The notes beneath the pieces were generated by a model. That model saw nothing but the letters and a program-made list of their open reading frames with translations. It was not told the origin of the DNA and ran no database searches. Positions 19,455 through 49,767 of a DNA stretch of 64,000 nt are shown piece after piece (position 1 is the stretch's first letter; each line of letters opens with the position of its first letter). Both the position numbers and the translations under genes were made by a program. The stretch comes from Corythucha ciliata (Eukaryota; Arthropoda; Insecta; Hemiptera; Tingidae), in assembly GCA_038030265.1 (NCBI GenBank), contig CM075938.1, positions 54,677,189 through 54,741,188 on the forward strand. The letters run 5' to 3'.

Positions 19455-20285
19455 TTACTGAGCAGCCCGTTCGGCCTCTTCAGCTTCGTTCTCGTCGAAT
19501 TTCGCCGCGCTCATTTCATACTGTTTGACATTTTCAACGGTGGGCAATTTGTCGATATAGTCTCGAATGAAAGGCACGTGACTATGGTGATTGTTGGGCA
19601 GAAGAAATATAGGACTGTTGGGCACTGAAGTGTCCATGTATCCTTTGCACTTGCACAGGTACTTCGTTTTATTTTCCACGCACCTCATGGTCCTTGGTGG
19701 GAAGGAGGGGGGAAACAACAAAAATGAAAATAAAACTGTAATGCACACAATAATAATTAATACTTACGATTTTTTTTGGCCTTTATGGTGCACATGGTAG
19801 TAGTGCCCTCTACCATCATAGTACACGGTTGAGTTGTTCCTTCCTCTAAGAGCTACAGACTCTATTGCTGTGGTATAAGAAATCCGTTGTAATAACAAAA
19901 AATAAAATAGTTAAAAAAAACACGATGAAATACTTACGGTGGTCGTTTATTTCATAGAAAAGTCGGTTTTCTAGAGAATTATAATGGTAATTTTTATTGT
20001 TTGTTTGTTTAATTATGAAAAATGGCTATTAAATATTATACCGTCGATATCAGAGTATCCTTCTTGTACTCCGGCGTGTTCGTCTTGCAGAACAGTCATA
20101 TAATAAACTGAATTGTTAAAATTTTCTTTAAGGGGTTAGATGAAAAAAAAAAAATCAAATAAATAAATGAGTAACGGAAAAGAGCACGGGATTACCTTCA
20201 GGCTCTGCAACGGACGATTGAGATTTATTCGCTTCATCAGGCGGTGAATAATTCTTGATGAAATCTAAATAATTGAGCGGCAAAC
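19455..20285 (-). CDS. FLYWCH-domain protein, copy 1 (no transposase core), 5'-partial
   Basis: Five exons with GT-AG borders and consistent phases: 20196-20285, 20042-20083, 19938-19970, 19768-19867, 19455-19692 (stop). Three small acidic linker exons precede a FLYWCH zinc finger split over the last two exons: STVYYDGRGHYYHV, then MRCVENKTKYLCKCKGYM and NNHHSHVPF, with Cys, Cys and His ligands all present. After FLYWCH the frame ends about 50 residues later in an acidic tail (ENEAEEAERAAQ). No MULE core follows, unlike the four paralogues to the right. The first exon needs an upstream partner, which was not found, so the start is open. FLYWCH domains bind DNA or proteins. A nuclear role is inferred. 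It could be a natural short paralogue or a gene truncated by 3' loss. Confidence 0.8.
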
Positions 20286-20339
20286 CTGAAGAAAAAAAAA
20301 AGAGTCTCCTGTTAATAGAAGATACAATTCAGCGTCGTT

Positions 20340-20835
20340 TCGAGCAAATGGGCATACAAGAAAATGCCTGAACTGACGATTTCTACCGTGAAAAATGGCA
20401 AAACCGCGTATTAGCGCTCTAAAAACGGCCAAATAATAGACCATTCCGCACACCATTGAAAATGGCAAAACTGACAATTCTTACCCTAAATAATCGAGAA
20501 CCCCTAAACGCCCTAGCAATTTCAATATTTAAAGTTTCTCGCTCTAAAAATGTTCAAACTTGTCATCCATTCTTCCTCTTACTAAGCGTTTTGATAAGCG
20601 TTTTGCCCGTTGAAAGTGGCAAAAACTTGACTGATCTGCGCCCAAAACATGACTATAGTGTCATATTGACGCCCTGAAAAATCACTAAATTGACAGATTT
20701 GCGCCCTGAAAATACTTAAATTGACGATCACGTGACTTTGAAACGGCAAAAACGACTATTCCCGCACCAAAAATGGCCAAATTGACCATTCCAGCTATAA
20801 AAATGGGCTGAACTGATGATTCGTGCCCTGACGAT
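20340..20835. repeat. ~27-bp degenerate repeat 'ccctaaaaatggccaaactgacgattcg'
   Basis: Repeated GCCCTGAAAA / AAATGGCCAAATTGACCATT units. The same family occurs at 44150-44560 and, in the opposite sense, at 22690-23200. Confidence 0.7.
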
Positions 20836-20883
20836 CAGGGGTCAGAACTATAAATTGTCCAAGTGTTTTTTCTATTGACAGTT

Positions 20884-21071
20884 TGATTTTATTAAATGGA
20901 TTTGTTTTTGACCTTTTTCTGTCTTGTTGAACATTTCTTTCACGACGTTTCGCCAGGATGATTCCTAACGGCCTCGACCAGAAGACGTTAGGAATCATCC
21001 TGACGAAACGTCGTGAAAGAAAAGTTCAACAAGACAGAAAAATGTCAAAAATAAATCAATTTTATAAATTT
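20884..21071. repeat. Near-perfect palindrome, ~86-bp arms
   Basis: The left arm 20884-20970 and right arm 20986-21071 are inverted copies around a ~15-bp loop. The central parts are almost identical (CGACGTTTCGCCAGGATGAT on the left, its complement with one change on the right). The outer 30 bp are more diverged. It is probably a foldback element or the joined ends of a mobile element. Confidence 0.85.
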
Positions 21072-22260
21072 TCCATGCCCCTCCCACAAAAACTGTCAAT
21101 TTCGTCCTACAAATGTCAATTTCGCCCCAGAACTGACAGTTTTGACTTGAAAACTGCCAATGTCCTCCTACATACCGAAAACCCCCAAACCGAGGGAGCA
21201 TCAGACAGTTCAAGCTCAGACAATGGGGTTTTTAGGCCCCTTCACCGAAACAGTCTAGTAGGTACTGGACAGTGTCTTTGAAACTGTCAATTTCTTCCTT
21301 GGAACAGTCAACTTCGTCCTACAAATGTCAGTTTCGTTATTCAAAACTAAAGATAATTTATTTTTAGTGTTGAGGCTTCTTTTTTCTTTATCTCCGCTGG
21401 TGGAGGCAGGCATCGCCAGAGAAAGTGTTTCTTCAGTTTTCTTCTTCTGAATTCAAAACTTTCAATACAATCTCAGAAACTGACAATTTCATCCTATAAA
21501 CTTTCAATGTGGTCCTATAAACTGTCAATTCTGTCCTACAAACTGTCAGAGAAAATGTTTCTTTATTTTCCTTTTTTTTATAATTCAAAACTGTCAATTC
21601 AATCCCAGAAACTGTCGATTTCGTCCTTGAAACTGTCAATTTCATCTTTAAAAACTACCAATTTCGCCCCAGGAACTGGGGGGGGGGGGTTATTCTGACA
21701 CTTTTTCACATTGAATTTCCTATCGGAAAGTCATGCGCTATCATTCATTTTCTTTAGAAATCACTGAAATGAGGTGATTTTTCGATAGGAAATCCTATGC
21801 TGAAGAATTACAGAATAGCCCCCCCCCCCAGACGGTTTTGGTTTGAAAAAGTCAATTTCCTTCTAAAATACATAAAATCCCAAACCTTGATTTCGAGAAT
21901 AAGAGAATTTGGGATTAGACCAAGGGATTTTTAAAAACCCCTCACCGGAAACAGTCGATTAGGTAGTAAAAACTGTCAATTTCATCCTAGAAATGTCAAT
22001 TTCGTTATTAAAAACAGTAAATTTTGTCGTTTAAAACGTCAATTTCGTCCCGGAAACTATCAGCGGACATTTATTCCTGAAACTGCCAATTTAATTCTAT
22101 AAATGTCAATTTCACCACTCAAAACAGTTTATTTCGTCCTATAAACAGTCAATTTCGTCCTTTAAAACTGTCAATTCCGTCCTACAAACTATCATTTCAT
22201 CCAGGAAACTGCCGATTTCGTCCCAGAAATTGTCAATTTTGAACAAAAATTCAATTTTGA
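21072..22260. repeat. ~20-bp degenerate repeat 'actgtcaatttcgtcctacaa'
   Basis: Dozens of AACTGTCAATTTCGTCCT units fill the interval except for the small inverted-repeat element at 21678-21829. Two units of different age carry a shared extra segment (CCCCAAACCGAGGGAGCATC at 21185, CCCAAACCTTGATTTCGAGA at 21880). Confidence 0.8.
21678..21829. mobile_element. Small MITE-like inverted-repeat element
   Basis: The ends are G-run + TTATTCTG at 21678-21697 and CAGAATAG + C-run at 21811-21829. Inner matches ATTTCCTATCG (about 21715) and CGATAGGAAAT (about 21783) make imperfect arms of ~45-50 bp around a ~50-bp centre. No clear target duplication is visible inside the repeat background. Confidence 0.55.
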
Positions 22261-22269
22261 CAGAAATTG

Positions 22270-22600
22270 ACGTAGCAGGCGGCTACACCTTGGATATAAT
22301 GTTGGCGCTACTGAGCACCACCAGTCCTGTACACACTCCACCATCTCAGCAAGACCGCGGCCCACCGCTAGATGCTTGGTGAAAGAAGCCTCGGGTTGAG
22401 GTCCTTTATAAAGCCCTCCTCCCCTCCAAAAAAAAACCCTGCTTTGGAGAGCCGCAATTGGGGAATGGCACCACGAGAGTACGCGAGGCGGTGCTCACCG
22501 GTTCGATCCCGCCAGCTCCGAACAGGAATACTCCGCCCATCACCACCAAAGAGTCACTCCTCCCATTTTTTTTTTTTAGTTGTGTAAACACACATTTACC
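22270..22600. repeat. Possible SINE-like segment with a B-box
   Basis: The GC-richer segment contains GGTTCGATCCC at 22500-22510, a match to the pol III B-box, followed by a T-run at 22565-22577. A convincing A-box and a tRNA cloverleaf were not found, so this is weak. Confidence 0.25.
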
Positions 22601-22689
22601 TCATCCTCTTGTTTCGGGAACAGTTTTACTACAATAAACACAGTTTATTGATCGTGAATTGAGTCACTTTTTGCCATCTTCAGGGCATG

Positions 22690-23330
22690 CATTATCCTTG
22701 CAGTCATTTTTAGGGGCGAGTTTGGCCAATTTTAGCAACGCGAAGAACCAGCCAAGTAATTTTATGTACGTCGAAAGTAGTCATTTTATCGGGCGCGGAG
22801 AAACATAACAGTAACCGATCGGGGGAGGGGAGGTTGATCAGATGGTTAAGGTGGAGCCATACCTGTTCGGTGCGGGAACGAAGAATGACCAGTTTATAGG
22901 GCGCGCGGAATGGTCAATTTAATCTTAATTTAATAAGCGCGTGACTAAAGTCAGTTTGTCGATTTTATGGGCGCTCATGGTCAGTTTAGCCATTATCAAT
23001 GCGCGAATGGAAAGTTACTGTCGGTTTAGCAATTTTTTCAGCTGAACTGAGACAGATTTGACAATTTTATGGCGTGACTATTTGACCAGTTTGACTATTT
23101 TAGGGCACGAATCGTCAGTTTAACCAGTTACAAGGAATGAATTGACAGTTTGGTCATTTTCTGAGAAGGAGGATTGAAATTCTGACATTTTTATGGAGTT
23201 TCGGCTATTTTGGGCTGCCCGCCCTTCTTTAATTTGTACGACACCAGCTACACCTAAAATCCGTCAATTCACCCCTTCAAAACTAAGCATTTTTGCCTCG
23301 AAAAACCAAAAATAATCTTTAAATTCCGCC
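22690..23330. repeat. 'ggtcagtttagccattttagggcgc' degenerate repeat
   Basis: The units are the reverse complement in style of those at 20340-20835. They are degenerate, and no gene is present. Confidence 0.6.
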
Positions 23331-23369
23331 CATAAAACATGTTTTTCACAGAAAAATGGTCATTTTCAC

Positions 23370-24930: not shown

Positions 24931-24989
24931 TTTCATCTTTAAACTTTTCAGGGGCCCCCCATCCGAACGGGGGCTACGCTACGCTAGTG

Positions 24990-25600
24990 GGCTAATACCC
25001 GCGAAATTAAAAGTTTCCGTTTTCGTTGTTGTTTTTTTAATGGAGCTGCCTTCCTCACTTTAATCAAGCAAGTTTCTCGGCTTAATTCAAGCGAAATTGG
25101 AAAAGTTTGAGGCGCTTTCTTGTTTAGCGATTCTCGACCTTGGGCTGACAGGCCCCGACTGCGCTCAATGCTCTCGATTAGCCGTGTCATTGAAACATTA
25201 AGCTCCAACCATTGAGTTGGCAAGTTGGGGTCCTAAATTGAGCGAAATTACAAATATCCTGGCTGAATATCACCATAATCATTCATTTTGCTAGTTTCGG
25301 GTCTTAAATCATGCGTAAACGCAACTTTCGGGTCTTTCTGTCAACAAAATTGCAAGTTACGGGTCTTAATTTCGCAGACATAGCAAGTTTCGGGGCTAAA
25401 TACCCGTGACATTTGAAGTTTGCATTTGATTTTTTTGTGGACTCAGACCTCGAGCCGGTCGGCCCATGACGGACGGCACGGCGCCGGCGTCTCCGTAGGC
25501 TAAACCCCCCTCCCCCTAACGACAAAACTGTCACATTTGGCTTCAACATTCACTGGAAATTCGCGACTTATTTAAGTACGGTAAGAAGAAAGTATGGTGT
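24990..25600. repeat. 'gcaagtttcgggtcttaatttcgcg' degenerate repeat
   Basis: Recurring AAGTTTCGGG / TCTTAATTTC strings. The same family is at 30900-31400 and 53450-54120. Confidence 0.65.
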
Positions 25601-25830: not shown

Positions 25831-28621
25831 TCACCAAGCATCGGTAGCCGAGGCGCACCGGCCTGCATTTTAGTGTTGAGTATTATTTGAAATGAACTCA
25901 CCGTGAGTTAGAGACTCTAAAAATTTGATGTCAAAGCAGGCGATTTTCTTCAAAATATTTACGATGCTGCAGTCGACGTTGCCTGCCCTACGACTCAAAT
26001 CTTCAATTAAGGGCCAGTAAGTGTCCTCTGGCGGTGGCTTTGAGAATCCTTCCTGATAACGGGAGGGGGAATTTTAGTTTTTAACCCGTTTCAGACGAAG
26101 AAGTCGAACTTACATTCTGTCTACTGGTGAAGTCTTCTCTGTAGTATTCTTCAATTTGTCTTATTTTTTCTATAAAGGAAATTAAATTGATTTAAAATAA
26201 ATAAATAAACCTTTCGAGTTTCAAAAGCCTACGGTAAAGAGTCCAGAACGGCATTCGATGTTTGAGACACTCTTCGGTCTTCAAATGAAGCTCTTCGACA
26301 GCACTCGACACTTTCATTCGTGAGCCAAAGACGGAAAAGGCGTGAGTGCCGATTGTGTCGATCCAATGTGTTCTGAACTTTACAAGAATCGGCTTGGCCA
26401 AGGCGAAAAGATGATTGGCATCGGTGAACGTCAAGACTGCCTCCCAGCCTTTGATGAGTGAAATGTTTTTATCATCGTCGGCGGGCAGGAGTGGAAGAGC
26501 GACGAGCTGAATTGGGGACATTTTGTTTTTTAGAAAGTAAAGAACACGCTGCGTTCAAATAGAATATCTTACCAGACGTAGTAGGCACAATATTTCTGGT
26601 TTGTCCGTTAGAGTTTTGATTAGACCCAACTCTTCGACGTGACGAAGCACGCTCTACAACAATTATTAATAAATTAAAACAATGTTTTGATTATTTTACC
26701 AGTCCCTTCTCACACAACGTGCCATATAAAGTAAGCACATACCTGGATGATATGAAACCAATTGAAGGAGATTTCCGCGTTAGGAAAAACCTGCTTCGTA
26801 GCATTCTCTATCATCGAGTTGAAACCAACCATCACGGGAATGTCATTAAAATTTAGATTCAAATCGTCCCTCACAGTTTCCATAGTTTTAAGGAAACATT
26901 CCTCGGAGTCGATTAGTACTGTTACGTACAGAACTGGAATGCACTTTAAAACAAAATAATTAGAAGGATGAGGCTATTAACTCAAAAATAAGAAGAATAA
27001 AACTAACCAGCCCATTGGTATATACATAGACGATAATCAAATGTCTGAAAACGGTGATTTTCGGTTGAACAGTTAAAACACCTGCAGCGTCCAATTTACA
27101 CTTTCGACTGATGGGTAGAACAAATTCCTTGTTAGCCATCCAAATTCCAATCAGCCCTCCATCGGGCGACACAATTCGCCCCTGCACAAACACCGCGGTT
27201 CCATCGCGGACGAGAGCGAATTTCGAGTGTTTCGGATCGAGGACGAGCTGTTCAAAAGCCTCCAAATTCGGGGGAACGGGCGGGAAACCGCACCGACGAT
27301 GACCGTAGAGAGCTCGTCGTACCGTATGGTAGCCGACTTTCGATCTTAAATTTTGATTCCTAGATAGAAGAGAGAGTGAGAGGGGGGGGGGGAGTGAGTA
27401 GAATAAAATCGCGTAAACGAAAATTAAAGAAATTTCAAACTTTTTAAGCTCATCCTCGTAAATTCTTCTGATAGGCTCGTCGCTGTTCATGGCCCTTTCA
27501 ACGACTCTGTCGACAAACTCCAAGGTTTCATTACTGTACTCTCTAACGTACGGTGGGTGATTGTGTGGCCTTGTAATGAAAACGGGAGGGTCGGGAGGCC
27601 CCAGCTCCATGTAGCCAGACGAACGGCACACGTGAGGTGGGCGAGTCTCGACGCAACGAAGGTATTTCCGTATTTTGGACTGCTTGGCCAGGCGATAATA
27701 ATATCCTCGACCGTCGTGGTAAACGGTGAACTCTTTGCTTCGAGGATGAATTATTTCGGAGGGAATTGCTGGGAACAATAGACGTCATTAGTTACGTTTT
27801 ACTATTTTCCTTTCATTATTGTCTTACGGTTCTCCCTGGAGTCCATCATAATTTGCTGGGGATCAACTGAAATTTAGGGTTAAGTTAAAAACGTCATTAT
27901 ATTACTAGTGGGAAGGGAAAAACTTACAAGAAACGTTCTCAGCATCAAATGATGAGGCGTCTGGAAATAAATTTAACGCAATTATTATGTTAGAAAATAA
28001 TAATACTTCGAGTACTAACCTCTTCCTGTGCCATCCTCTGCAATGTTATTTTCTTCAGCAGAATTAACAGCTGGAACAAATTAATCCAGTTAAAAGAGAA
28101 ATGACAAGGTTTTTTTCGTTACTCAAACTACACGAGTGCCTTACATTTCCCCTCACCACTCGTTGAGGCGGCGACGGTACCGGGGGTTCTATCGGGCAGC
28201 CCAGTCATCTTCAAATCCGTTCTACCTGCATGTTCGAAAGTTCAGAAAAACGGGGAAAAAAAATTTGATCAAACTTGTCAACCATCACCCAAAATTAGAA
28301 CCAATGAATCGACAATTTACCTTGAAGAATCGATTCTAAAACTCCGGTGTGACAAGAGCCCAAGCACTCGACCATTTCACCGAAAGTAAATCCGCCTTCT
28401 TGGTATTTCAAGTAAGTCTCTTCGATATAGGCGTCGTTGAGTGCCCAAGGATTTCCTTTCCGATCGATATTCTGTTGAAACAGAAGAGGTTAAGGTTAGA
28501 CTTATTCCAGTGACCAAGATTACGCTTTATGTGATACTGTTGAAGTTACTCACAGTGGACGGTACTTTGATTTCGCGAAGAAACGCCCTTCGGGTGCGTA
28601 ACTCAGCCGATCTCACTTTAG
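25831..28621 (-). CDS. FLYWCH zinc finger + dead MULE transposase core, copy 2 (most complete)
   Basis: Fourteen exons with matching phases: 28554-28621, 28321-28471, 28145-28225, 28020-28070, 27928-27960, 27828-27866, 27441-27768, 27008-27359, 26743-26943, 26573-26653, 26233-26506, 26114-26169, 25902-26052, 25831-25862. Small phase-1 linker exons lead to the FLYWCH domain (FTVYHDGRGYYYRL, LRCVETRPPHVC, HNHPP). The MULE core follows: RDGTAVFVQGRI, KLDAAGVLTVQP at the first-Asp site, DIPVMVGFNSMIENA where the second Asp is Gly, FNWFHIIQ matching the C/FHxxQ motif, then AVEELH matching the third acidic site. With the second Asp lost, transposition activity is not expected. It is probably a domesticated nuclear DNA-binding protein. 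The first exon still needs an upstream start; a TIR element begins 88 bp upstream. The last exon (GRCASATDAW) is the least certain. Confidence 0.85.
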
Positions 28622-30565: not shown

Positions 30566-30601
30566 TATCGGTAATTCGTTCGGCCCCCCGACTTAGAGGG
30601 G

Positions 30602-32135: not shown

Positions 32136-34021
32136 TTAAGGTACGTAATAGCTTATCCCTAAAATATCAGTAGGTATTTGGTACTCACTGTAGATTTTCC
32201 AAGGCGAACTCAATATTTTCGTATTAACGCTCGTCTTCAAAAACGATTCTTCGACGAATTCGTTGAGTTGCCGAGTCTTATAACACGAGAACCCTTCAGG
32301 GGTGATGTCATTCATCCAAAACTCCTGATAATATTTTATGAAATCCTCAAGCGCCTTCCCCATCGAGTGTTTTTCCACTTCAGCCAGAACGTGCTCCAAA
32401 CCCTTTTGAATCGTCACGCTTTCAATGCCTTCCTGTGGGCTGGGTGGCAGTAGGGCCAAAGCTAGGAACTACGAAATTTGATAAATACGGGGAAATCACT
32501 CGGTATTTTTAGCGAACTTACCAGTCTGACGATCGAATTTTTCGTTTGGTTTCTCACCTTTATTTTGAAGTTAATGTCTTCAAGCTTTTTCAATATAGCC
32601 TGTTCAAAATTTTGTCAAATTATCATGGTTAATGTCAAAATGATTATTTAAATAAATAAAAAAGCGACGGGAACTGTCAAACCTGGTTGTAGTAGAACCA
32701 ACTTGGCGTTATTTTAATATTGGGCCCTGCCTTTTTAGCTGCTTTGAGCATGTTCATATTGAACGGTAGTATAACTGGAACGTCGTAGCACTGAAGGCGA
32801 AAACTGGAGAATAACGCATTCATTAGGTTGAAATACGTATCCTCTGAAGAATCCGCCAGTATTGCACACAAAATCGGTAGGCTCTGTGATTTTTACGTGA
32901 AAAAGTTTTTGAAATCAATTACTAGTGAACACGGTGGGGGGGGGGACATTCTTTTTTAATTTTTACCTTTCCATTTACGATGAAATAGACAGTAATGAAA
33001 TATTCCATTGCTGCATGTTGGTATGTTTTCAATTCAAGAAGATAGACCGCTTCGAAATACTGTATGCAATCCGAGATAAGTCTCTGTGCGAACTCTACAT
33101 TGCAGAACCACACGCCATTCTAAACAGAAACATTACAAAATTAGAGAAAAAAACGCGTCATGTACCCGAAGGGGGGGGGGACGCATCCTCACAACTTGCT
33201 CGTCGGAATTTTTAAATATCCCCTGGAAGAGCGCTTGTTCCGTCTGTAGCGCGTTGGACCATTTCAAACGGTGTAAAGGATTTTGAAGAATCCAGGCCAT
33301 CTGACCAAGATCTTTTGGATTCGGAGTCAACGCCTTGCGAGCGCAACGAATCACTTGTTGCCTCACGCAATTATACGTCACGTATTTTGCCGCTTCAGGG
33401 AAACTAATTAAATCCCCGACCACCATCTCGATTAATAAAACAAAGAAAATCAAATCCACAAAAGGGGAATGAAAACTCACTTTTCTAATTCTTCGTCGAA
33501 TATTTTCTTGAAATTTCTTTCATTTTTAAGGTAGCGTTTTTTAACCGCTTCTAAAAAGGGAACAGTGTGAATGTGATGCTTCGTATTTGGCGGATGATTG
33601 TGGCTTTTGATTAATTGAATCGGCGCATTAGGCGGGTCTTTGAACATGGAGGCAGATCCTGGACAGCCGCTTTTAGAGCGCTTTTCAGCGCATCTCAATT
33701 GCCTGGAAAAGAAAGGAAAATAATTTCAATGACGGTAATCCTCATCCACGTGAAATGTAAATTCAACACATTACTCAAAAATTTTAAATAATAGAAAATC
33801 ATTAATGAGAAATATGGAATAAGTAGACACCTTTTATTAGTTGAAGTTCCGCAGCAGTGGTAGTAGTACCCAACGCCATCGTAATACAACGTGAAGTCTT
33901 CAAGCCGTTTAATTTTCAACGATGGAATACCTGAAATTTATAGAGCGTTAGCCTCGACGTAATTCGTTACATTTTACGAGAAAATTACCTTTTTTCTTCT
34001 TCGTCTCTTCCGTATTTTCTT
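32136..34021 (-). CDS. FLYWCH zinc finger + dead MULE transposase core, copy 3, 5'-partial
   Basis: Nine exons: 33989-34021, 33831-33930, 33481-33702, 33196-33403, 32967-33119, 32683-32883, 32522-32599, 32189-32468, 32136-32158 (stop). FLYWCH: FTLYYDGVGYYYHC, LRCAEKRSKSGC, HNHPP, all ligands kept. MULE core: GVWFCNVEFAQRL, then DVPVILPFNMNMLKAA, where the second catalytic Asp site is Pro, then WFYYNQ in place of the FHxxQ motif, then LNEFVEES. The first catalytic Asp site is also replaced (CIQYFEAVYL). The C-terminus is shorter than in copies 2, 4 and 5. The first visible exon (EENTEETKKKK) needs an upstream partner. A LINE occupies the DNA immediately upstream (from ~34240), so the 5' exons are lost or lie beyond it. 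Confidence 0.83.
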
Positions 34022-34160: not shown

Positions 34161-34233
34161 TGGGGATAAGCCCATAAAATCGGTCCAAAAAAAAAGTGTT
34201 GGCGCTCATCTCCGAATATGAGTTGCACGAGTC

Positions 34234-37200
34234 ATGCAGCACATTAAAAAAAAAAAAATCGTTGTCTATCCCCCGAGTGTTGGCTCGCAAAGTAAAGATA
34301 ATGTAAGGGGTAGAAATAGAAAGTTTGTGAATAGAGATGTAGTCAACTACGATAAACTGGAATCCGTACTGAAAGAGGAAAATTGGGAATCCGTTTATAA
34401 GAACACGTATGACGTGAACAAAGCACTAGATCAGTTTGTAAATAAGTTGGAAAATATGGTTAGTTCTTGTTCAATTAATCAAGTGTTCAAGGCTAAAAAT
34501 AAACACATGAAATTAACTGATTGGATAACTAAAGGATTGGTCAGTTCAATCCGTTCTAGGGATCGGATGAGGAGAAAACTTCGTTCTGAACCATATAATT
34601 TAGCGCTGAAAACCCGTTTCGTTAGGTATAGAAACCTTTTAAACTTGTTACCCAAAAAAGCCAAAGTGATGCACTTCAGAAGTAAAATTTTAGAGGGGAA
34701 AGGGAACCCTAAAAATGTTTGGAATGTTATTAATGAATTAGTACCCGGGGGTAACTTAAATAATAGCGAGGTAGATGAAATTCTAACTGATTCGGGCCTA
34801 ATTGTTAATGACGCTGAAAAGATTGCTGACTGCTTCAACTGCTATTTTTCGGAAGTGGGGAGACAGTGTAAGGAGGGTATTGACGTTCCTGACGTTGAAA
34901 GAATCAATATGGTTAATGAAAGGTGTGATCCTAGGATCGTCAGGGAATCTATTTTCCTTTCGCCAGTTACTCCTCAAGAAGTCCTTAGCTACTTGATTAA
35001 AATAAAAAAGACTAGCAGCTGTGTAATTGGTAATCTAAAGAACGCCGTTCTCAGACAAATTGCATCTTTTATTTGTGCTCCCATCGCCCATTTGTTCAAC
35101 TTAGGCTTTTCGATTGGGACTTTTCCTGATATATTCAAGAAAACTGTCATTATACCTGTCCATAAGGGTGGAGATACTAAACTCCTAAGCAATTATAAAC
35201 CTATTGGCGATTGTAGCTAAGGGATACGATGTCTGGCGGCGTTTCAGAGAAATATTGAGTCCGGTACTCCATGTGATTTGTTGTTGTCGTTTGACAACAA
35301 ACTACAACAAAGGTTTTATACAATGAGGAAGTTCATGTATCAAAAATGTTGATCAGTGACACTTTTTTACTATGAACTACGGCTAAATAATCCGATGGTG
35401 ACGAGGAGGCCTCGATATTGTACCATTGGCATCACCGAATCAAGAAAACAAGACGGTTATGCGGGTGCGCAGTACACCCGTACAGAAACTTTCACTGTCG
35501 GCTATTTGTTGGAGCAGGAAAACTCGAAAACAGCGATTCAAAAACGTTTTCGACCATTTTGCTGAACCTGTGCCGTTCTCTGAACACTAAAACGAAACGG
35601 TGAACTGGCGAGTACCAATGAAGAAATGATAGGGCGCTCGTGGGATGTCTCTCAAGGGTGAATCCAGAGAAAACTGTGTGCTGTGGTTTCTCTTCCCAGC
35701 GTAACCGAGACACAACATTGTCATTTCATTGTTTGGCAAAAATTGAGGGTTCAACGGTGTCAGCTATCAATTAGCCCAGTGTTGGGAGAAAGTCGACCGC
35801 CGAAAGGCTTGGGGGCTTGCTTGACGTTCGAGTATATAAGTGTATCAGAGACCATGTTCTTCTGTTCTCGTCACTTTAGGCCAACTGACTACTTTTTTCC
35901 CATTATGTTACGGACGTTGACCACGAAAAAACAGAAGACTTGTTATCATTTAACATATGTATGGAGTACCGGTTTCATTATCACACGACACTAGCGCCGC
36001 TAGTGATAGCTACAATCGCCAATAGCACTGACATCTGCTTTAGCTAAAGTATTTGAAAAATGTATTAAAACTCGACTTTGTGATTTCCTGGATAAACATG
36101 AAATTTTGTCACCAAACCAATATGGGTTTAGAAAAAGACGGAGTACTGAGCATGCTCTGTTTAATTTACACAATTCAATTCTAGATAAATTGGATAATGG
36201 GATGCATGTACTGGGTGTTTTTCTTGACGTTAAAAAAGCGTTTGACACTATTGACCATGAGTTGTTAGTGAGTAAATTACTTAATTGTGGAATTCGTGGG
36301 GTGACTCTTGACATTCTATGGTCGTTTTTGAAAGACAGACCATGTGCCACTAGGATAGGGGATAAATATAGTAGGGAAGTAATATCAAAGTGTGGCGTGC
36401 CGCAGGGCTCAGTCTTGGGTCCTTTGTTGTTCCTGATCTTTGTGAACGATCAGCTGAACCTAAAACTCTCGGGTGAGATTCAGGCATTTGCAGATGATCT
36501 GTCTCATATTTAGTCATTCGAATTGGGATCATTTGGTTAATCTTGCTAGTAGTGAATTACAAGTCGTAAAGATGTGGTATGATAACAATCTGCTTAGCTT
36601 GAATTTAGCAAAGACGGCGGCAATTCGTTTTTCTTTTTAAAAAAGTGTGTAATCCAATCGCTACTTCTTTTAAAATACATAAGTATGTGTGTACTGCGGG
36701 TCAGAATTTACAGTGTGACTGTCAAGACGTAAGATACACTTTTGAACATAAATATTTGGGAATCCTATTCGATCGTAATTTAAAATTTAAAAACCATGTT
36801 TCTAAATTAGTTTCTCGTATGCGTAAGTTATTTCATAGATTTAGAATTCTTCGTTCCGTTTTACCCTTAGACCTTTTGAAATCTGTTTATTTTGCTTTGG
36901 TTGAATCAATTTTATGTTACGGTGTGGTGATTTGGGGGTCCACTGTGAAATCCCATTTAAAATCTGTCCGGTCTGCTCAAAATACCCTTATTAAGATCAT
37001 TTTGTGTAAGGCTAGGCGGTTCACGACTTCTTTAATTTTCAATGAATTTGGGGTTTTAAATTTGAAACAGCTTTTTCTTTTGAATTCGGTGTTGAGTCTT
37101 CTCTATCTTAACTTAGACAAATGTAAATCTAACAGTCGTTTTGGCACCAGGGCGGTGTCTCAATGTGATATGAATTTGCCGACTATCCATACGGAAACAC

Positions 37201-37610
37201 GTAGGCGTTCAGCATTGTTTTCTGGAATCAAGTTTTGTTATGATAATAAAATTAATTTGAGGAACTTTAAATCGAGGAAAGCTTTGAGAACCTTTCTTCG
37301 GGGTGTTCTACAAAATTTTCAGTGATGTGTTGGTGCAAAGATGTCTGGCTATTTGTTATTCTCTCCTTTTTGTATTAACTTCGTGATTTTTATTGGTTAT
37401 ATTTAGGCTAATAGAATGTAGTCTAAAATTTGATTTTTATTTCAGTAGTGTGCATGCTCGTTCTAGGCTATAAAGAGTGCTAGGCCCCTTGGCACAAGCT
37501 TTTAGCTTTTAAAGGGGCTGGCCAATTATCTGTCTCTTATTGAAGTATTTGTAATTACTAGTGTATCTGGCAAAAATAAATAAATAAATAAATAAAATAA
37601 AATAAAATCT
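34234..37610 (+). pseudogene. 5'-truncated jockey/CR1-like LINE ORF2, split by a TIR element and two frameshifts
   Basis: Piece 1 (34234-35203) encodes the linker after the endonuclease and the first RT block (FKKTVIIPVHKGGD, NYKP). Piece 2 (36023-36513) continues in the same frame after the inserted element: SPNQYGFRKRRSTEHAL, VFLDVKKAFDTIDHELL, CGVPQGSVLGPLLFLIFVND and the catalytic FADD. A +1 shift at ~36505 and another near 36640 separate it from the C-terminal part (to 37325: LGILFDRNLKFKNH, SILCYGVVIWG). The endonuclease domain is absent, a usual 5' truncation. The 3' end is an (AAAT)n-type tail at 37572-37608. Not functional. Confidence 0.92.
35204..36022. mobile_element. TIR DNA element (~0.82 kb) inserted in the LINE
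   Basis: Perfect 16-bp inverted ends TTGGCGATTGTAGCTA (35204-35219) and TAGCTACAATCGCCAA (36007-36022), with a further inverted match CCGGTACTCCAT about 55-60 bp inside each end. Removing 35204-36022 restores the LINE frame exactly, so either there is no target duplication or a 2-bp AT duplication with ends TGGCG...CGCCA. The interior has a 69-codon ORF (35356-35565) whose stretch YLLEQENSKTAIQKRFR looks like the N-terminal helix-turn-helix of some mariner-type transposases. No complete transposase is present. Confidence 0.88.
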
Positions 37611-38639: not shown

Positions 38640-39440
38640 CGGTTACCATAGTAAGGTTGCCAATCTATCCATTACCACGGTAACCGTTGTCATAGTAACG
38701 ATTTTAATGGAACCGTACCATGGCAACTTTACCATGCAAACTGTTACCATAGCGTCAGTTGCCATGCCATCGGCAACCACAACAACGTGTGCCATGGTAA
38801 CGGTTACTGTAACATCAGTTACCATGGTATCAGTAACCATTTCGTCACACGAAATGCCACACTTTACCATGGCAACCGTTGCTACGGTAACCGTTACCAT
38901 GGCAACCGTTGCTACGGTAACCGTTACCATGGCAACCGATGCTAACACGGCAACTTTAACGTGAAAACTGTTACCATAGCAACGGTTGCCTAAAGGTTAC
39001 CATAGCAACGGTTGCCATGGTAACAGTTACCATAGCAACGGTGTCATATTTCATATTCCATCGATCATATCTCATCATCATATCGATCATATTCCGACGA
39101 TGCTAAGGTAATCGTTACCACGGCCACTTTACCATGCAAGCTGTTACCGTAGCAACAGTTGGCATGGTAACGGTTACAATGGAACAGCACCATGGCAACT
39201 TTACGACGCCAACTGTTACCGTAGCAACGGTTGCTATGGTAAAGGTTACCGTCGCATCAGTTGCCAAGCCATGCCATCGGCAAACGCCACAACGTTTGCC
39301 ATGGTCACGGTTACCGTAACATCAGTTGCCATGGTATCAGTAACCATTTCGTCACACGAAATGTCACACTTTACCATGGCAACCGATGCAAACACGGCAA
39401 CTTTAACAAGAAAACTGTTACCATAGCAACGGTGTCTATT
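38640..39440. repeat. Array of X-box-like palindromes (GTTRCCATRGYAAC)
   Basis: Tandem/dispersed units of about 15-18 bp. Seven exact matches to GTTRCCATRGYAAC lie at 38893, 38923, 38970, 38996, 39011, 39026 and 39417 (14 bp each), with many one- or two-base variants between. The palindrome fits the RFX/DAF-19 X-box consensus. A larger duplication is visible: the segment with CGGCAACCACAACAACGTGT (38768) and CATTTCGTCACACGAAATG (38837) recurs at ~39278-39363. ORFs in it on both strands are repeat translations. Confidence 0.9.
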
Positions 39441-39611: not shown

Positions 39612-42543
39612 TCAACGATGAACTGTTTGAGGTATACAAGAAAGAAAGAAGCCACTAACCTGAGGAATCCACGTCTATGTCGAAGGTTTCCTTCTTCTCT
39701 GGTTCTGGCAGAATCATTTCTCTTTCTAGGAAAATAAAAAACGTTGTAAAATGAATAAAAATAAAAATGGAGAAAATATTACCATCGAGAGGTATCGGAC
39801 AGCAAGTGCCAACTGCGCTCATAAACTGAGCGAGTGAGCTTTCCCCCTTTTTAACGTCGCTCAAAGCTTTCGAAATGATGACGGAACTTTTTTTTGGTTT
39901 TTGCAGACCGTCCGGCTGTACAAAAAAATTGTTCAAACGAAAATGAACTGTAGCGACTGGGTAGGCAGATCTTACATCGTCATCTTCGTTGAAAATTTCT
40001 TCTTCGCCACGAGAGGCTTCCGCGTAGCGTTGCCGGAAGCCTTTTTCCATGTCGCGTAATTTATCTGTGGGAGAAAAACAAGATTGAGGGTATTTGAAGG
40101 TACGGTAATGATGGGGGGGGGGGAGTCTTACCGTAGAAGACCCAAAATCGATCACTTTCCTGGGTCGCCTCGTACAGTGCAGATCGATGTTCTTCCACCA
40201 AATCGTTCAATTCGAGTATTCCACCCTCGTTACTATTAATCCTGTTGAAAAGACTAAACTCTTCAGGGCCCAAACGGTTGATCCACTCGAATCGAACGTA
40301 GTCCATGATTGGCTTGAGAGTGTTGGTCAAACCTCGTCGAGCCGCCTCTTTATTTATGTGCTTCCAACCAGTTTTCAATGATAAATCACCGTAGTCGGTC
40401 GTCTTGTCAGGCGGTAGTAAAGGCAAAGCGACAATGAGACGTATAATATTCATGGCGTCCACGTTTGATTTGACGACGTGACGAAGTCGAAACTCGGAGA
40501 GCATCTCGACAACGGCCTAAAAAAAAGTCGGTTGATGAATCGCCCCAATGGCGTCGAGAGAATGAGAGGAGGAAAACTGACCCGAGAAAAGTGCGACCAA
40601 CAAGACTCTTTTTTCACAGTGGCAAACACGGCTGAAAGTGACTCGCGTGCGTATTTCTCATAGCCAACTATCACTTTCATGCCGGACATATCCAACTGGA
40701 GGTGGTTTTTTAGAATTTCACAGACAGCGTTGTAACACTCGTAGTTGGGCTTTAGTGACAGAACGTAAATTATATCGGTGATCTAAACGACAAAAAAAAA
40801 AAAGTAAGGAAAAACATATTAATAGTCAATGAATTCATTTAGTAATGCAAACTTTTTTAGAAGACAAAACGGATGTGACGATAATCTGCCGAAGCGGTAG
40901 GTTCGTATAACACGGCAGTAGAAGACTCTCGAAAATGACCGCGTCTATTTTTTCTGACTTCACAAAATCGCAGGCGAAATTCTTATTACACAGCCATAAT
41001 CCAATCTGAGGGAAAAAGAGACAAATGCATAGAATTCAGCAACGCACAAAATGTTAAAAAGGAAGGGGCAAACGCTTACCAAATCACCGCCTTTGGGCCG
41101 AATGAAACTTTGACAAAAGTTAACGTTCGATCCTTTCAACTTCAGGTACTGGTTACAAACCGGATTCAAAAATATTTTCTTCAGTCTCGACAAATCGTGC
41201 GGTTCGTAGAAACTCTTCAGATCTTGTTTCCCGGCCCTTCTGGCGCGAGACGTCCTCTGTGCTTCATCAGGTTTGGCAGTGTCAACAGCCGTGCCGCTGG
41301 GGGCGCCCAGTTTTCTCGACTCATCAATTGCCGACGGTTCAATTAGTGACAGTCGTTTGGCCCTGTGAACTCGATTTTTTTTTTTTTTTTTTAGTAAAGG
41401 AAACATCCACAATGGACGGCGGGAAAATTACGAGGGGTTGACGACAGTTGAAGAGATCCTGTGTGACCCGCGCGCGTGGGAAGCCTCTGGCGAAGGTTCA
41501 ACCGTTGTCAATTCCTTGGCCCTGCAAATTTTTCCCTTTTTAGTAAACAAACGGGCGCTATTTATAACAAAAGGGACATTTACGAAGTAGCCATCCTCGA
41601 CTTGTTCACCGAGATTATACCCTTCCCAGGCGTCGCACTCTCAACAGGAAATTTTTCTTGGAGACGAACGAGGAAAGCCTCCGAGTCGACGACGTTTGAA
41701 GTGGTTTTGAAGGGCCCATGAGAGTGTGTCGAATGCGTTATGATGGGCGCTAGTGGTTTATCTTTTGTGAGGGTAGCGGTCGCTGTACACCGGAATGAAG
41801 TCTTTGACTCGACACACTGAAGCTTCCCACTGAGGACAATGAAGAAGTTGTGAGAAGTGAAGTTCATTTTGCAATGACCTCACATAAAACTATCATACCC
41901 GTGCTGGTTGAAAAACCAAAATCCTTTGCCGTCGTAGTAAATATAGGTTTTAAAACGCCTGCAGTACACTTTTGCTGAAGGTACTGTAATCAAAACGCAA
42001 GTTAAGATACAAAAAAGATAAAAAAAAAACAAAGGTACTAAAAATTGAAAACTTCATTAATTAACTCACCCAAAATTTCATTGTCGACGTCATGAAGTAC
42101 GGCTAAATTCAAGATAAAAACAATGAAGATAAATAAATAAAAAACTCGCAAACAAAACCATCTTACTTTCACTCGCTGCGCCACCACTCGTACCATCGGC
42201 CAATAATTCATCCACGGATGACTTAGCCATTGCCTCGGAAGGAGACAAAATTGAAGAAAGCGCGAGGGGATCTGTTGACGTACTGGCTCCAACTGAAACG
42301 TCCATTGACATTTCATCACCCTTGAGAGTGCAGACACTCGTAATTCTAGGAGAATCGTTGGTTTCTAAAGTGTTAATGTGAGGATATAATATGACATTTT
42401 TTGGAACTCTGGAAGGCGGTGGTGGAGGAGCAGAATGTACAAACCAGAAGGAGCCAGTTCTTGGATGCCGTCGTCATCATCGCTTGACAAGTCAATCATG
42501 GTGATCGGCGGTTTTTTAGCTTCATTGGCCGAGCTAGTGGATG
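39612..42543 (-). CDS. FLYWCH zinc finger + dead MULE transposase core, copy 4, 5'-partial
   Basis: Exons: 42445-42543, 42167-42364, 42070-42102, 41899-41983, ~41610-41829, 41432-41521, 41080-41362, 40853-41005, 40582-40782, 40132-40516, 39976-40064, 39783-39915, 39660-39725, 39612-39622. The N-terminal linker has TMIDLSSDDDD, a textbook SUMO-interacting motif pattern. FLYWCH: YIYYDGKGFWFFNQ, LQCVESKTSFRC, HSH. The MULE core keeps the first Asp (EKIDAVIFESLLP) but the second is Gly (KVIVGYEKYARES). The W-rich C-terminal region (RFWVFYG) matches copies 2 and 5. The junction 41610/41521 does not join in phase with the sites chosen, so that border is uncertain. The 41432-41521 exon looks like a partial duplicate of the start of the next exon. 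Probable role: nuclear DNA-binding protein of transposase origin. Confidence 0.82.
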
Positions 42544-44149: not shown

Positions 44150-44580
44150 CAGCTAAATTTTTAATTCAGGCCCTAAAAATGGCAAACATAAGTATAATGT
44201 GGTACAAAAACAGCTAAACTGACAGTTCGAGCCTTGAAAATGCTCAACGTAGCGATAACTGCCCCGAAAATGTTTAAAACTGACGATTCGAGCCCTCAAA
44301 ATGCCAAAAAACTGACCACTTGTGTTCGAAAAATGGCCAAACTGACCATTCAAGCATTGACTTCACTTACATTTTACGACTTAAAAAACAACCCAACCGG
44401 CAATTCAAGCCCTGATGGCTTGACGGACCATTCTTGTCTTAAGAACGACAAAACTGACTATTTTTTCGACAAAAAAAAATGGTAAAATTGACCATCCACG
44501 CCCTAAAAATGGCCGTACTGATAATCAAACTGGCCATTCACGTCTTAAAAATGTAAAAAAAATGAATCTATACACCCTAA
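44150..44580. repeat. 'gccctaaaaatggccaaactgac' degenerate repeat
   Basis: Same family as 20340-20835. Confidence 0.7.
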
Positions 44581-44715
44581 GAAAAGGTGTGTTTGCCAAC
44601 AGCTAGCTCTGTTGTGAGCGCCTGTCCCACGGAAAATGTCTGGCGACCTCAGAAGTGTCATCTCCTAGGCCTAGACCATAAAAAACGTCCTGCGAAGGTG
44701 CCAGACACGATAAAA

Positions 44716-46172
44716 TGACCCGGATTTTTCATACGGTGGGCTCCCGGAATATTTTTATGACGTTTCATTAACTAATCCATAAAAACCACCAGCGTAATAA
44801 TGTTTAACTGCTAATTCAATGATGAAATTGGGGGAAATCGTTATTTCGCGGCTAAAATCACGTTTCATGGCTAAAGTGGAGAATATATTAAAAAAAAAAA
44901 AAAAAACACCTTCTAAGTATGGAAAACGATAATTTTCAGTTTCTGAAGGCAAGTTCGTGGCTCAAACTGCGAAAAAACGCTAATCCACAGCTAGTAGCGA
45001 AACAAATCTCACTAATTCACAGCTAAAATTAAGAAAAGTTGCTCTTTCAAGAATAAAATTGAGAAAAATCGCTAACTAGCGGTTAAAATGGTGAAAAATC
45101 GCTAAAACGACAAAAAATCGTTAATTCGCGACTGAAATGGTGAAATGAAAAGTTGGTAATTCATCGATAGAAATTGAGAAGAAGCACTAAAGTGAAGAAA
45201 ATACTAATTCGCGGATTAAATGAAGAAAACGTCAATTCGCAGCTTCGTGCCAAAAAGTGAAAAAAAGCTAATCTGCGGCAAAATTTCAAAAAAAGCGTCA
45301 AAAATTCGCGGAGAAAATGGGGGGGGGGAATCCATAATCAGCAGCTAAAATGAGGAAAAATAGAGGAATAATGGCTAATTGGGGGTTGATTTGAGAAAAT
45401 TTGCTGATTCACGTAAAATTGAGAAAGCAGGAAAAACTCGAATTCACTTCGAAATTCAGATAAATCGCTAATTCACAGCTTAAAAGGGGAGAAATCGATA
45501 ATTCCCCGATAAAATTGAGAAGAAGCACTGACGTGCGGAAAAACGCTAATTCGCTGTTAAAAATTCGTGGCTGAAAGTGAGCAAAATCGCTAATCCGCGG
45601 CTAAGTGAGAATAATGCACTAATTCGCGGATAAAATTCAGAAAAAGCGTCAACTCGTAGCGAAAATTGGGAAACGAAACTCTAATTGATGGCTCGCTGGG
45701 AGGCTAAAATTAGGTGAAACGCTAATTCACGGCTGAAGTCAAGAAAAATGGCTATTTATGGGGTTAAATTGAGAACATTTGCTGTTTCACAGAAATAATA
45801 TGGGTAAATGACAAGTCGCGGTTTCCGGAGACAACTTCGTGGGTAAAATTAGAAAATATAGCGCTAATTCACGTGTGAAATCACTCATTGTAGCGGCTCA
45901 AATCGCCTGGGGGAGCCAAATGTCAAGGGCCGGCACTGCAATGAGCTGCCCCAGGAAACATCTTTTGTGCAAATGAAAAACGCTATTATGCTGTGGTTAA
46001 CTTATGTCGTTGAAGTTATTAAACAGGCCCCAGAGCTTTTTATTCAGAACGTCACGGCCTCTTGCTTAAGATCAAAGTGTTTTGATAGAGGGGGGGGGCG
46101 AGGATGGGTGGCCCACCTGAGTTCATACAACTAGGTTTATGACCCACGACCAAAAAAGGTTGGCCGGCCCTG
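44716..46172. repeat. ~30-bp repeat, block D, ending in a hAT-like terminus
   Basis: The block starts after the tag at 44716-44752 and contains core-type units to about 45880. It then has a segment (CAAATGTCAAGGGCCGGCAC ... GAGCTGCCCCAGG ... GCAAATGAAAAACGCTATTA) shared with 51100-51190. It finishes with AAAGGTTGGCCGGCCCTG at 46155-46172, which in reverse complement is CAGGGCCGGCCAACC, like a hAT terminal repeat. Confidence 0.6.
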
Positions 46173-46229
46173 CTCTACTGGATGGTGAAGAAGGAGCGGG
46201 ATTTGAGTGAAATGCGCATAGTTGGATCG

Positions 46230-46600
46230 CCAGCGAGAACTTCTTCTAAACTTTGAGAAAATGTACCCTATAGCGAAACTAAGGACGTATCCACGTCAAA
46301 AACGCTAACTCCGATCTAAAATTACGAAAAAGCGCTCGTTCGCGGCTCACATTGACAAGGGTCCTATCCTGATCCCCTCCTCAGCATATTATTCTACTTC
46401 TACGGCTTAACGGCTGAGGAAAAATCGGTAATTCGCGGACAAAACTGAGAAAAAACGAACGAGAAAAAGCGCTTATTTGCGGCTAAAACTGAGAAAAAAT
46501 TGCGCTAATTCGAGGTTTATGGAGGAAATTTCATGACTAAAATTGAGTAAAATCTCTAATTTACCGATTAAACTGAGAAATTGCACTAATTTGTCAATCA
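46230..46600. repeat. ~30-bp repeat block at the 3' side of copy 5
   Basis: Core-type units. Any last exon of copy 5 would have to lie in or beyond this block. Confidence 0.7.
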
Positions 46601-46642
46601 AAATACCCCACGAATAAGACAAAATAGTGATAAAGAACTCAC

Positions 46643-49600
46643 GGCCTGGTGATTCAATGACGACTACATCCATCGAAGTGCTTTCAGTCGGCATATCCAC
46701 CACGGGTGGAACGGAATCAGTCGACGGTGTCGCCGTTTCTGGTGGTTCACCTTTGTAAGAACAGAAATTAAACGGGTAGGGGGTAGGGATGGGTCGTGAA
46801 AAAAAACAAAACAAAAAAACAATGAACTTTGTTTTTACCTTCAACGCGAGCCTTCTTCACGGGTGGAGTCGACTTTGGCGCTAAAGACAGAAAACAAAAA
46901 AAAGTCAGTAACGGACAATACCCACGTCTGAGATAAACTTACTAGAAATATTAGGACGCTTCTTCAATATGGACGGACCTCGCAAATTGGTTACAGGAGC
47001 TGAAAAATACAGTTGAAGTTTAGTAAAACGAAAACCAACCATTCAGGACAACAAATTGTACCTTTTACGCTCGGGTTTATCACTTTGCGGCGATTCGAAC
47101 CATAGTCCGGTAATAAACAGCCTGCTTGGGAGAGATACATATCCTTTTCTGGATAATAAGCTGTTAACAAAAAAATGGATAACGCGATATTTGTTTTAAA
47201 TTTAATATTGTTTTCGGGTACCTTTTAGGTATGTTTCAATGAGGCCAGCGGGCACTGAAGCCAGTTTCTCCATTAATGAAATCACACTGGTGTGTTGAGC
47301 ATTATACATCGCGAATATCTTGCTTATATTATCTTGCAAGGGTTTATGGCCATCTACCGCAGCCGGCTGTTCGAAAGGGAAGTTTTAATAATGCGGTACA
47401 CTTACTTAATTCATGGCAACTTACAGATTTCTTTTGAATGAAAGCCATAATGTTTTTCTTGTCAAGATTTTGTAGACTTTCTATTTAATAAACAAAATAA
47501 CACTGTTAAAATTCCTGGAAGAAAAATTTCTAACGCTTGAATTCACCGTAGAAAACCCAAAAAGGCGGGGAGTCGTGAATGAGGAGTAAAATTTGCGAAT
47601 TGAAGACTTCAACGAGTTCGTTCATCTTGTGCGAGACGTCGAACACGGAAATCATTCGCGGGCCGATCGTTTTCATCCAGTAACTTTGAAAATGATCGAA
47701 AAATGGCTTCAAAGCGGTCGTAGTGTAAAGTTTTTGCTGCTGAGTTTGTTTGAGAATGGCGCTCCAACAATTGGTGAGCGTTAGAAAATGGGGCAGCTCA
47801 TCGCGAGGGCGATGCGGCAAGAACGAAAGGGCCATCAGCTACAATGTGGTGGTGAGGCTTGGTGATTAAAAAACATGGTAAATGAATCGTGCAATGAAGA
47901 GTGTTACCATTTTTACGAGAAGGAAACTTATTGGATAGCGGTTGAAAACTGATTTAAGTTTGAATTCTTCAAATTGATTGAGTAGGCTCTGAAAAATAAA
48001 AAATAGATTGTTAATTAATTACATTTTTCAGAATAAAAGAAATGAACTTACCAAACAATAGTGAAAACGACACGCTTTGGGCAATAAAAAGGGAAACACA
48101 GAGTACGCGGCTTTCCTTAAAGCTGAATTGTATCCGATTAAGACGTTAACTCCGTTCAAACTAAAATCCAAATTGTCTTTGAATAATTGAAGAACAGCCG
48201 TGTACACGTCTTGATTAGCCTTTTGTAGAAGAGCGTGCAAAACTGGAACACACTATTTGCCGCCAAGTTATTTTACGTCGCTCTTAGACGCACCTTTTTC
48301 TAAGCTTACCACGTCTTCGTAAATAAAGTAGATCGTAAACAGGTAAGACACTGGATAGGATTCGGGGAGTTGTAGCTGATCCAAACCGAAAGTGTGGATT
48401 TCCATTGAATTTTCGAGTTTCGTTAAAAAAAATTGGTTTCCAAACCAAAACCCGACCTAAAATATCAAACACGGAACTTTTGTTACTTAAAACTACCCAT
48501 AAATATTTTTTAAACGATAGAAACATTACCATGTCACCGTCCGAATTTGTGACCTCTCCTTGAAATGTGTTTCCCGAGGCCACCATATTATCCCGTTTCA
48601 ACGCTTCCGCATAAGCCCTGCTGGTGAACAAATCCTTCAAGTGATGCATGTTGAGAGGATTAGGCAGAGATCGAAACACAATGTGCCGACTGGAAAATAA
48701 AAATGTGTACAATTGAAAAGTCGTACAACGTTTGTGGCAGGGACTACGGGTGAAATACGCACAAAGGGCTGCCCGTAATGACGGCCTCGGGTCGAACTCT
48801 AACGCCGGTTGATGGCCGTGACGACGTTCGTTGATTTACGGTCGTATTAGCTCGAAGCGGAGTTGACGACGCACGCGGTTGAAGAAACTGAACAGGTTTG
48901 ACACGAATTCCCGATTCTTGTCTTTTCCTCTTATTCACCGCAGTCTGAGGTGTTTGCTTCGGCCTAAATTGAACTAATTTAAAGTGATTTCAATACCTCT
49001 CACCCCCCCCCTTATTAAGGTTATTCGAAGACTGACATCGAATCTTTTTTTGCTTGTATTTCAGCTTTCTTGAGCAACTCAATGTCATTGGCACTTCGAA
49101 TATTCGGCTGATGGTTATGCTTGTTCAACTCCTTTAGCTCATTATTATTCACTCGGAGCGTGGCCCTTGCCAAACACTTATGAACGGAAGTGGATTCAAT
49201 GCATTTTAGTCGAAAAACGGCTTTGCTGTGACGAGAAAAAAAAATCGATTAAAAAAAAGTCGACTGAATCACAAAAGAGGCAGCGGTAAGGGAGAGCCAC
49301 CCACGTAGACGCTTCGATGACTTTTTTCCAATAGTTTCCGCGCCCATCGCCGTAAAGCAAGTCAGTAAGTTTGATGACTGATTTAACTGAACAAAACAAA
49401 TAAATTGTTGGTTTTATTGTGGAATAAGGAGGAGTACGAATTCCCAACCTGATTGATTATCGACTGTATTGGTGTCCAAAATTACGGATTCCTTTTCGAC
49501 AATGCCAGAAAAAGTTTTGAAGACTTTAAAAAAGAAAGTTTCAATAATAAAGACACAGATCTATTAAAAAAAAAATCATAGCCGTCATGGCTCATCACAA

Positions 49601-49767
49601 ACCATTGGTCGATAGCGACGCAGGCGAACAGATTTTGAGATCCACCAGCTCAACAATATCGTCATCATCATCATCACCATTACCCGGTGTTGGTCCATCA
49701 CCTTCGTGTCCAACGAAGTCATCACCCCCACCAAAGTAGTCGTGGTCACACATATTCCGAATGCAAT
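46643..49767 (-). CDS. FLYWCH zinc finger + dead MULE transposase core, copy 5, both ends open
   Basis: Sixteen exons with continuous phases: 49603-49767, 49449-49523, 49305-49386, 49037-49225, 48763-48963, 48530-48689, 48310-48456, 48052-48252, 47908-47988, 47547-47838, 47425-47480, 47222-47366, 47062-47160, 46943-46999, 46839-46880, 46643-46750. The N-terminus has DDDDDDIVELVDL, an acidic-hydrophobic SIM-like run. FLYWCH: LTDLLYGDGRGNYWKKV, LKCIESTSVHKC, HNHQP. A basic linker exon (NKRKRQE) looks like a nuclear localisation signal. In the MULE core the first Asp site appears lost, the second is Gly (VNVLIGYNSALRKAA), and RFHYCL matches the FHxxQ region. The long C-terminal tail has a second basic run (PPVKKARVE) and MDVVVIES. 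The final donor at 46642 needs a downstream exon that was not found. Confidence 0.83.

What the first reader, a model, noticed from the sequence alone, without database searches (positions are those of the whole stretch)
19455..49767. A cluster of five same-strand FLYWCH genes, four with a MULE transposase core
Five multi-exon genes in ~30 kb, all on the minus strand, share one architecture: small phase-1 acidic linker exons, a FLYWCH finger, then (four of five) a Mutator-like transposase core and a W-rich C-terminal region. Protein identity between copies is low although gene structure is kept, so the family is old or fast-evolving. Known MULE transposons may carry FLYWCH domains, but a tandem, intron-rich cluster looks like a host gene family. 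By analogy with other expanded zinc-finger clusters it could act against mobile elements, which are dense here. That last step is inference.
Basis: partly seen in the sequence, partly recalled or inferred. Interest (0 to 1): 0.92.

Follow-up and report, generated by a model that had tools for sequence, protein, structure and literature searches.

The report
Tandem cluster of dead-transposase zinc-finger genes
Five neighbouring, anciently duplicated genes in a eukaryotic genome keep a DNA-binding finger from a jumping gene, and four also keep its transposase core but have lost a residue needed to jump, so they look like jumping-gene parts reused as DNA-binding regulators, although nothing yet shows that they are expressed.

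The parts
19339..20285 (-). Copy A: three phase-1 linker exons plus FLYWCH finger; no MULE core (truncated)
   Evidence: FLYWCH 17.2 bits, below cut-off; found by profiles not containing it
25893..28471 (-). Copy B: 12-exon model, linkers, FLYWCH (27441-27768), MULE exons, C-terminal part; start and end not certain
   Evidence: FLYWCH fold; single copy at DNA level
32136..34021 (-). Copy C: FLYWCH plus MULE core; C-terminus short or truncated (last modelled intron only 30 nt)
   Evidence: FLYWCH 17.6 bits, below cut-off
39655..42543 (-). Copy D: 13-exon model with acidic IDLSSDDDD linker, FLYWCH, MULE core, duplicated cassette exon (41521-41432), stop at 39655
   Evidence: no Pfam hit at E<=1; canonical profile 5.7e-10
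47062..49753 (-). Copy E: 13-exon model from a candidate ATG; donor of exon 5 ambiguous (four candidates); more C-terminal exons down to about 46.5 kb not modelled
   Evidence: MULE 19.7 bits, below cut-off
26743..26943 (-). 201-nt MULE exon of B; D2 position reads VMVGFN (canonical IFIDFE)
32683..32883 (-). 201-nt MULE exon of C; D2 position reads VILPFN
40582..40782 (-). 201-nt MULE exon of D; D2 position reads VIVGYE
48052..48252 (-). 201-nt MULE exon of E; D2 position reads VLIGYN

Best explanation
A-E are tandem paralogues of an old, low-copy, multi-exon gene lineage derived from a FLYWCH-bearing Mutator-like (Phantom-type) transposase. Shown: common descent; FLYWCH finger with all four metal ligands; a MULE-like core whose second catalytic Asp is gone in four of four; dispersed relatives elsewhere in the genome. 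Inferred: they no longer transpose and were kept as nuclear DNA-binding proteins. The finger reads a DNA sequence; the dead RNase-H-like core and C-terminal part serve as a pairing or DNA-holding scaffold; the acidic, partly SUMO-interaction-like linkers recruit partners. They would act as sequence-specific regulators, more likely repressors, as plant FHY3/FAR1 and animal FLYWCH factors regulate genes. Local duplication after loss of catalysis then let the copies diverge.
Against: No transcript evidence. dN/dS not measurable. A and C look truncated. Models are hand-drawn. A dispersed multi-exon relative keeps catalytic DFE, so the lineage as a whole may not be domesticated. No relatives in two public-protein searches, although the same database gave 97 hits for an ordinary element; that tool misses distant relatives. 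Foldseek's own E for 2rpr is only 3.7e-3, none of its matches being under 0.001, and the folded alignment held canonical FLYWCH rows. In Pfam B scores slightly better with DDE_Tnp_ISL3 (E 0.007) than with MULE (0.024), both below cut-off. The third catalytic Glu is kept in four of four by mafft --add, which complete release from transposase function does not explain. The SUMO-interaction-like label and the mechanism of the FHY3 analogy are recalled, not tested.
Confidence: 0.6

Rival explanations
1. Relics: an intron-bearing MULE transposon lineage left a tandemly duplicated group of decaying copies here, and no copy makes a functional protein.
For: Two of five copies look truncated (A, C). 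One dispersed multi-exon relative has intact DFE. 21 of 49 matches to that exon carry stops inside the match, and 15 of them the same two kinds (one TAG, one TAA), over six chromosomes (150 of 234 candidates scored), so relatives of this exon have spread and died. Tm1-A shows that Phantom-type MULEs can have introns (PMC3169594, passages).
Against: B, D and E can be read as long open exon chains at 20-27% identity, second codon positions are constrained, and finger ligands are kept in five of five. Neutral relics this diverged should be riddled with stops.
Confidence: 0.22
2. Element-encoded brakes: inactive transposase paralogues that bind the ends of still-active FLYWCH-MULEs of this genome and inhibit them, kept by selfish or mutual interaction rather than as ordinary host regulators.
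For: Many MULE frames exist in the genome (150 PF10551 matches scored of 510 candidates), some recently copied (two pairs). Cluster proteins keep the finger and lack D2.
Against: No binding data. The B finger is only 12-18% identical to the canonical rows it was aligned with. Shared end sequences between cluster and elements were not searched for.
Confidence: 0.13
3. Five independent recent insertions of a mobile FLYWCH-MULE.
For: Family resemblance to Phantom-type elements; repeat-rich surroundings.
Against: Same strand, no DNA-level match between copies at E<=1e-10, B single copy, D2 lost in four of four.
Confidence: 0.03

Closest known systems
Phantom-type (FLYWCH) MULE transposons, e.g. 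Tm1-A of Meloidogyne (PMC3169594, passages)
   Same: FLYWCH then MULE core, about 500 aa; Tm1-A is reported to have introns
   Different: Window copies lack the second catalytic Asp and the DGT motif, lie in tandem and share no DNA-level match; no clear TIRs among the 25 of 202 inverted pairs listed
TE-derived FLYWCH transcription factors of metazoans, incl. ctenophore expansions (PMC10027918, passages)
   Same: Lineage-specific expansion of FLYWCH genes of Mutator origin; tandem duplication of TF families is mentioned in general
   Different: Here the MULE core is retained but dead, over a shared multi-exon structure, in one 30-kb array; the passages that I read do not describe this
C. elegans FLYWCH factors (PMC12265568, passages)
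   Same: FLYWCH fingers of Mutator origin used as transcription factors
   Different: No orthology tested; presence of a MULE core there not checked
Plant FHY3/FAR1 (PMC10027918 passages) and MUSTANG (PMC6446971 passages)
   Same: MULE-derived proteins used by the host as regulators or host genes
   Different: Different finger and independent origin (recalled)
Canonical single-ORF FLYWCH-MULE elements of the same genome (L004, L039)
   Same: Alignable over 393 columns
   Different: Intact DGT, DFE and E, one ORF; L039 has a recent 98.1% copy, itself broken, on another chromosome (L040)

Membership tests
FLYWCH zinc finger (PF04500) | Two Cys and two His ligands in order | tested here: met
   Invariant in A, B, C, D, E and L038; with nine canonical proteins three invariant and one at least 90%
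FLYWCH zinc finger (PF04500) | Pfam gathering score 23.6 | tested here: not met
   A 17.2, B 12.5, C 17.6, E 15.3 bits; D none at E<=1. With the domain alone 5 of 6 members incl. L038 match at E<=1, best 7.5e-7, B 0.011
FLYWCH zinc finger (PF04500) | FLYWCH fold | tested here: met
MULE transposase (PF10551) | Pfam gathering score 27.6 | tested here: not met
   B 15.5, E 19.7; C and D no hit at E<=1
MULE transposase (PF10551) | Homology to FLYWCH-MULE proteins by profile | tested here: met
   hhalign probability 99.1 over 393 columns; each of four copies found by the canonical HMM
Active MULE transposon | Catalytic D2 (DFE) | tested here: not met
   G, P, G, G in B, C, D, E
Active MULE transposon | Catalytic D1 (DGT) | tested here: inconclusive
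   DGT absent in all four; exact column depends on the aligner
Active MULE transposon | Catalytic E3 | tested here: met
   Glu in 4 of 4 by mafft --add; single-sequence hhalign also gives Glu in 4 of 4 but a different Glu in D
Active MULE transposon | Terminal inverted repeats and target duplications | tested here: inconclusive
   Of 202 inverted pairs only 25 were listed; four of these bracket B, at 71-75% with arms that look like the common ~30-nt repeat
Active MULE transposon | Near-identical copies at other sites | tested here: not met
   B: only itself in the genome. C, D, E: searches not answered
Exapted host gene | Transcription | not testable with these tools
   No RNA data
Exapted host gene | Purifying selection on protein | tested here: inconclusive
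   Codon position 2 differs less than 3, but dS saturated in 5 of 6 pairs and 3.8 in the sixth
Exapted host gene | Syntenic orthologues in other species | not tested
   No related genome held; protein searches for B and the four-copy alignment empty

The most novel reading that the evidence does not exclude
A tandem, fast-diverging array of catalytically dead transposases whose FLYWCH fingers each recognise a different mobile element and recruit silencing through SUMO-type acidic linkers: a counterpart of the vertebrate KRAB zinc-finger clusters, built from the enemy's own transposase.
Probability: 0.1. Interest if true: 0.88.

Novelty: new variant of a known kind. Interest (0 to 1): 0.45.

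Why it matters
It gives a graded series in one genome: recently copied single-ORF MULEs, dispersed multi-exon relatives of which the one sampled keeps DFE, and a tandem array that lost D2 but kept the finger. Loss of catalysis and local expansion can then be ordered and tested. If functional, the array shows how a genome turns a transposase into a diversifying DNA-reading family.

Tried and rejected
D1 to Asn: the first MAFFT alignment put a conserved W-x-N opposite DGT and I noted a shared D1-to-N loss. hhalign, mafft --add and single-copy hhalign place D1 some 15 residues later, so I dropped that claim.

Intron-rich as proof of host origin: dropped, because related exons occur at dispersed places and Tm1-A is reported to have introns.

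High-copy mobility of the multi-exon lineage: suspected from equal scores, not shown. In the DNA search with L038 nearly all rows are a 366-bp palindromic repeat (query 2664-3029); only 40 of 5602 candidates were scored, and among these the coding part has one other, partial, match (C2:23.36 Mb), so more copies are not excluded by that call. The protein search with its FLYWCH exon scored all 27 candidates and gave 15 rows. The 15 stop-bearing copies are not near those rows, so they may be a separate dead element; that the stops sit at the same positions was not seen.

PDB search with the FLYWCH profile: nothing real (best E 0.58); FLYWCH came only through the fold. dN/dS: saturated. TIR and TSD at the similarity edges of L039/L040: none seen. 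Rfam and tRNA: none. Taxon: not determined. PF04500 search of the genome: not answered, not repeated.
Full report
What was checked. The window lies on contig C2 (54677189-54741188) of a 400.9-Mb assembly with 57 contigs that is held without a name. Spliced models for five minus-strand copies were drawn from three-frame views and assembled by script. Start codons are uncertain, the donor of E exon 5 has four candidates, C's last intron (30 nt) is not credible, and E seems to continue towards 46.5 kb.

Is it more than chance? Yes. The copies share no DNA-level match with each other at E<=1e-10, yet a profile from any three finds the fourth among raw six-frame ORFs of 304 kb (best E: B 2.7e-26, C 1e-9, D 2.4e-18, E 4e-16). 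It also finds copy A, which was in no profile (7.7e-7 to 1.5e-12). Outside the copies the best place scores 0.57, and reversed ORFs give nothing better than 0.26. Intron phases largely agree, and the exon over the D2 motif is 201 nt in four of four. Apart from C's last one, introns are 53-181 nt, and they are AT-rich (GC 0.30-0.36 against 0.42-0.47 in exons). No sixth copy was found within 120 kb.

What has been lost and kept. D218, D284 and E407 of L004 are each conserved in 98% of the canonical proteins. At D284 the window copies read G, P, G, G in mafft --add and in all four single-copy hhalign alignments. E407 is Glu in four of four by mafft --add. D218 is alignment-dependent, but the DGT motif is absent from all four. 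The finger's C, C, H, H are invariant in A-E and in L038. Catalysis by a DDE enzyme needs all three acids (established knowledge), so cutting activity is unlikely while DNA binding may remain.

Relatives in the same genome. PF10551 gives 150 scored matches of 510 candidates, many in long open frames. Two pairs that I compared were recently copied: L039 on C5 and L040 on C3, 98.1% over 1627 bp; L005 and L008, both on C4, 99.9% over 996 bp. Separately, the FLYWCH exon of L038 gives 15 rows at E<=0.001, all 27 candidates scored. They are 13 places outside the cluster counting itself (three of them partial, one with a stop) plus window gene B; A, C, D and E fall below that threshold. At six of the 13 places a match to the 201-nt exon lies on the same strand within 6 kb, and four of these six also have a C-terminal match to B, at E 4.6e-5, 0.010, 0.016 and 0.25. 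The one such exon that I could read (L043, 180 bases, 4.2 kb downstream of L038's finger) has ITDFE, so D2 is intact there. At DNA level gene B is unique; C, D and E did not complete. The 201-nt exon also has stop-bearing dispersed relatives: 21 of 49 matches carry stops, 15 of them one TAG and one TAA (150 of 234 candidates scored). On a short D2-exon tree of 15 sequences (P0096 dropped for want of the motif) B-E are split from L043 and canonical proteins with support 89, which is weak but consistent with one loss before duplication.

Selection. Second codon positions differ at 0.45-0.52 and third at 0.67-0.72, so protein sequence was constrained after the copies separated; dS is saturated in 5 of 6 pairs and 3.8 in the sixth, so no valid dN/dS exists.

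Mechanism. Shown: finger kept, D2 lost, tandem arrangement. Inferred: a nuclear DNA-binding regulator in which FLYWCH reads DNA, the dead core is a scaffold and the acidic linkers recruit partners (A, B, D and E N-terminal parts: 16-23 acidic against 5-10 basic residues; D has IDLSSDDDD). The likeness to a SUMO-interacting motif is recalled, not tested. Nothing here speaks for action against mobile elements beyond their abundance.

Public relatives. B and the four-copy alignment found nothing, while a canonical element found 97, among them aphids, scale insects and a sea slug. The tool needs shared 5-residue words, so absence is weak. Seven literature searches turned up TE-derived FLYWCH factors (PMC10027918), MULE phylogeny (PMC6446971), Tm1 (PMC3169594) and worm FLYWCH factors (PMC12265568), all four read as passages only. 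None of these passages describes a tandem array with a dead MULE core, though PMC10027918 mentions tandem duplication in general. Phantom's original description is not held.

Verdict. The host-family reading is favoured but unproven; the defence reading is a guess. It is a new variant of transposase-derived FLYWCH families.

Noticed in passing
window 2072-4263, minus: LTR-retrotransposon remnant: reverse transcriptase (RVT_1 2.7e-25) and a gag-like ORF with sub-threshold gag hits.
   Followed up: partly
window 34222-37322, plus: Non-LTR (LINE-like, by eye) ORFs, one with RVT_1 at 4.5e-25, lying between copies C and D on the opposite strand.
   Followed up: partly
window 60747-62372, minus; 62969 onwards, plus: Rab escort/GDI-like gene (PF00996, RAE1_2 domain) head to head with an ORF that resembles FIP1 (name recalled; no Pfam hit).
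   Followed up: partly
window 17242-18155: 17-bp minisatellite, 53.9 copies, read through by two overlapping long minus-strand ORFs; another 17-bp array at 54714-54872.
   Followed up: no
window 38643-39433: Array of 15/30-bp palindromic units (GGTTACCATGGCAACC type) next to copy D.
   Followed up: no
window 41521-41432 and 41362 onwards, minus: Copy D has a duplicated exon start (AGGGCCAA...TTGAACC...); both could splice in phase 2, so it may be an alternative cassette exon.
   Followed up: partly
L038:2664-3029 as read on its minus strand (C6:30.7445-30.7449 Mb): 366-bp palindromic interspersed repeat; dozens of 87-95% matches on C1, C2, C3, C5, C6 and C7 among 40 scored of 5602 candidates.
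   Followed up: no
C2:37359989, C3:33479105, C6:47429152 and 12 more: Fifteen dispersed matches to the 201-nt MULE exon with one TAG and one TAA each: perhaps a dead repeat family with a transposase fragment.
   Followed up: partly
C6:30693984-30746049 and C1:26347286-26534527: Two further small groups of the FLYWCH exon (three places each, one partial), so the window's array may not be the only one.
   Followed up: no
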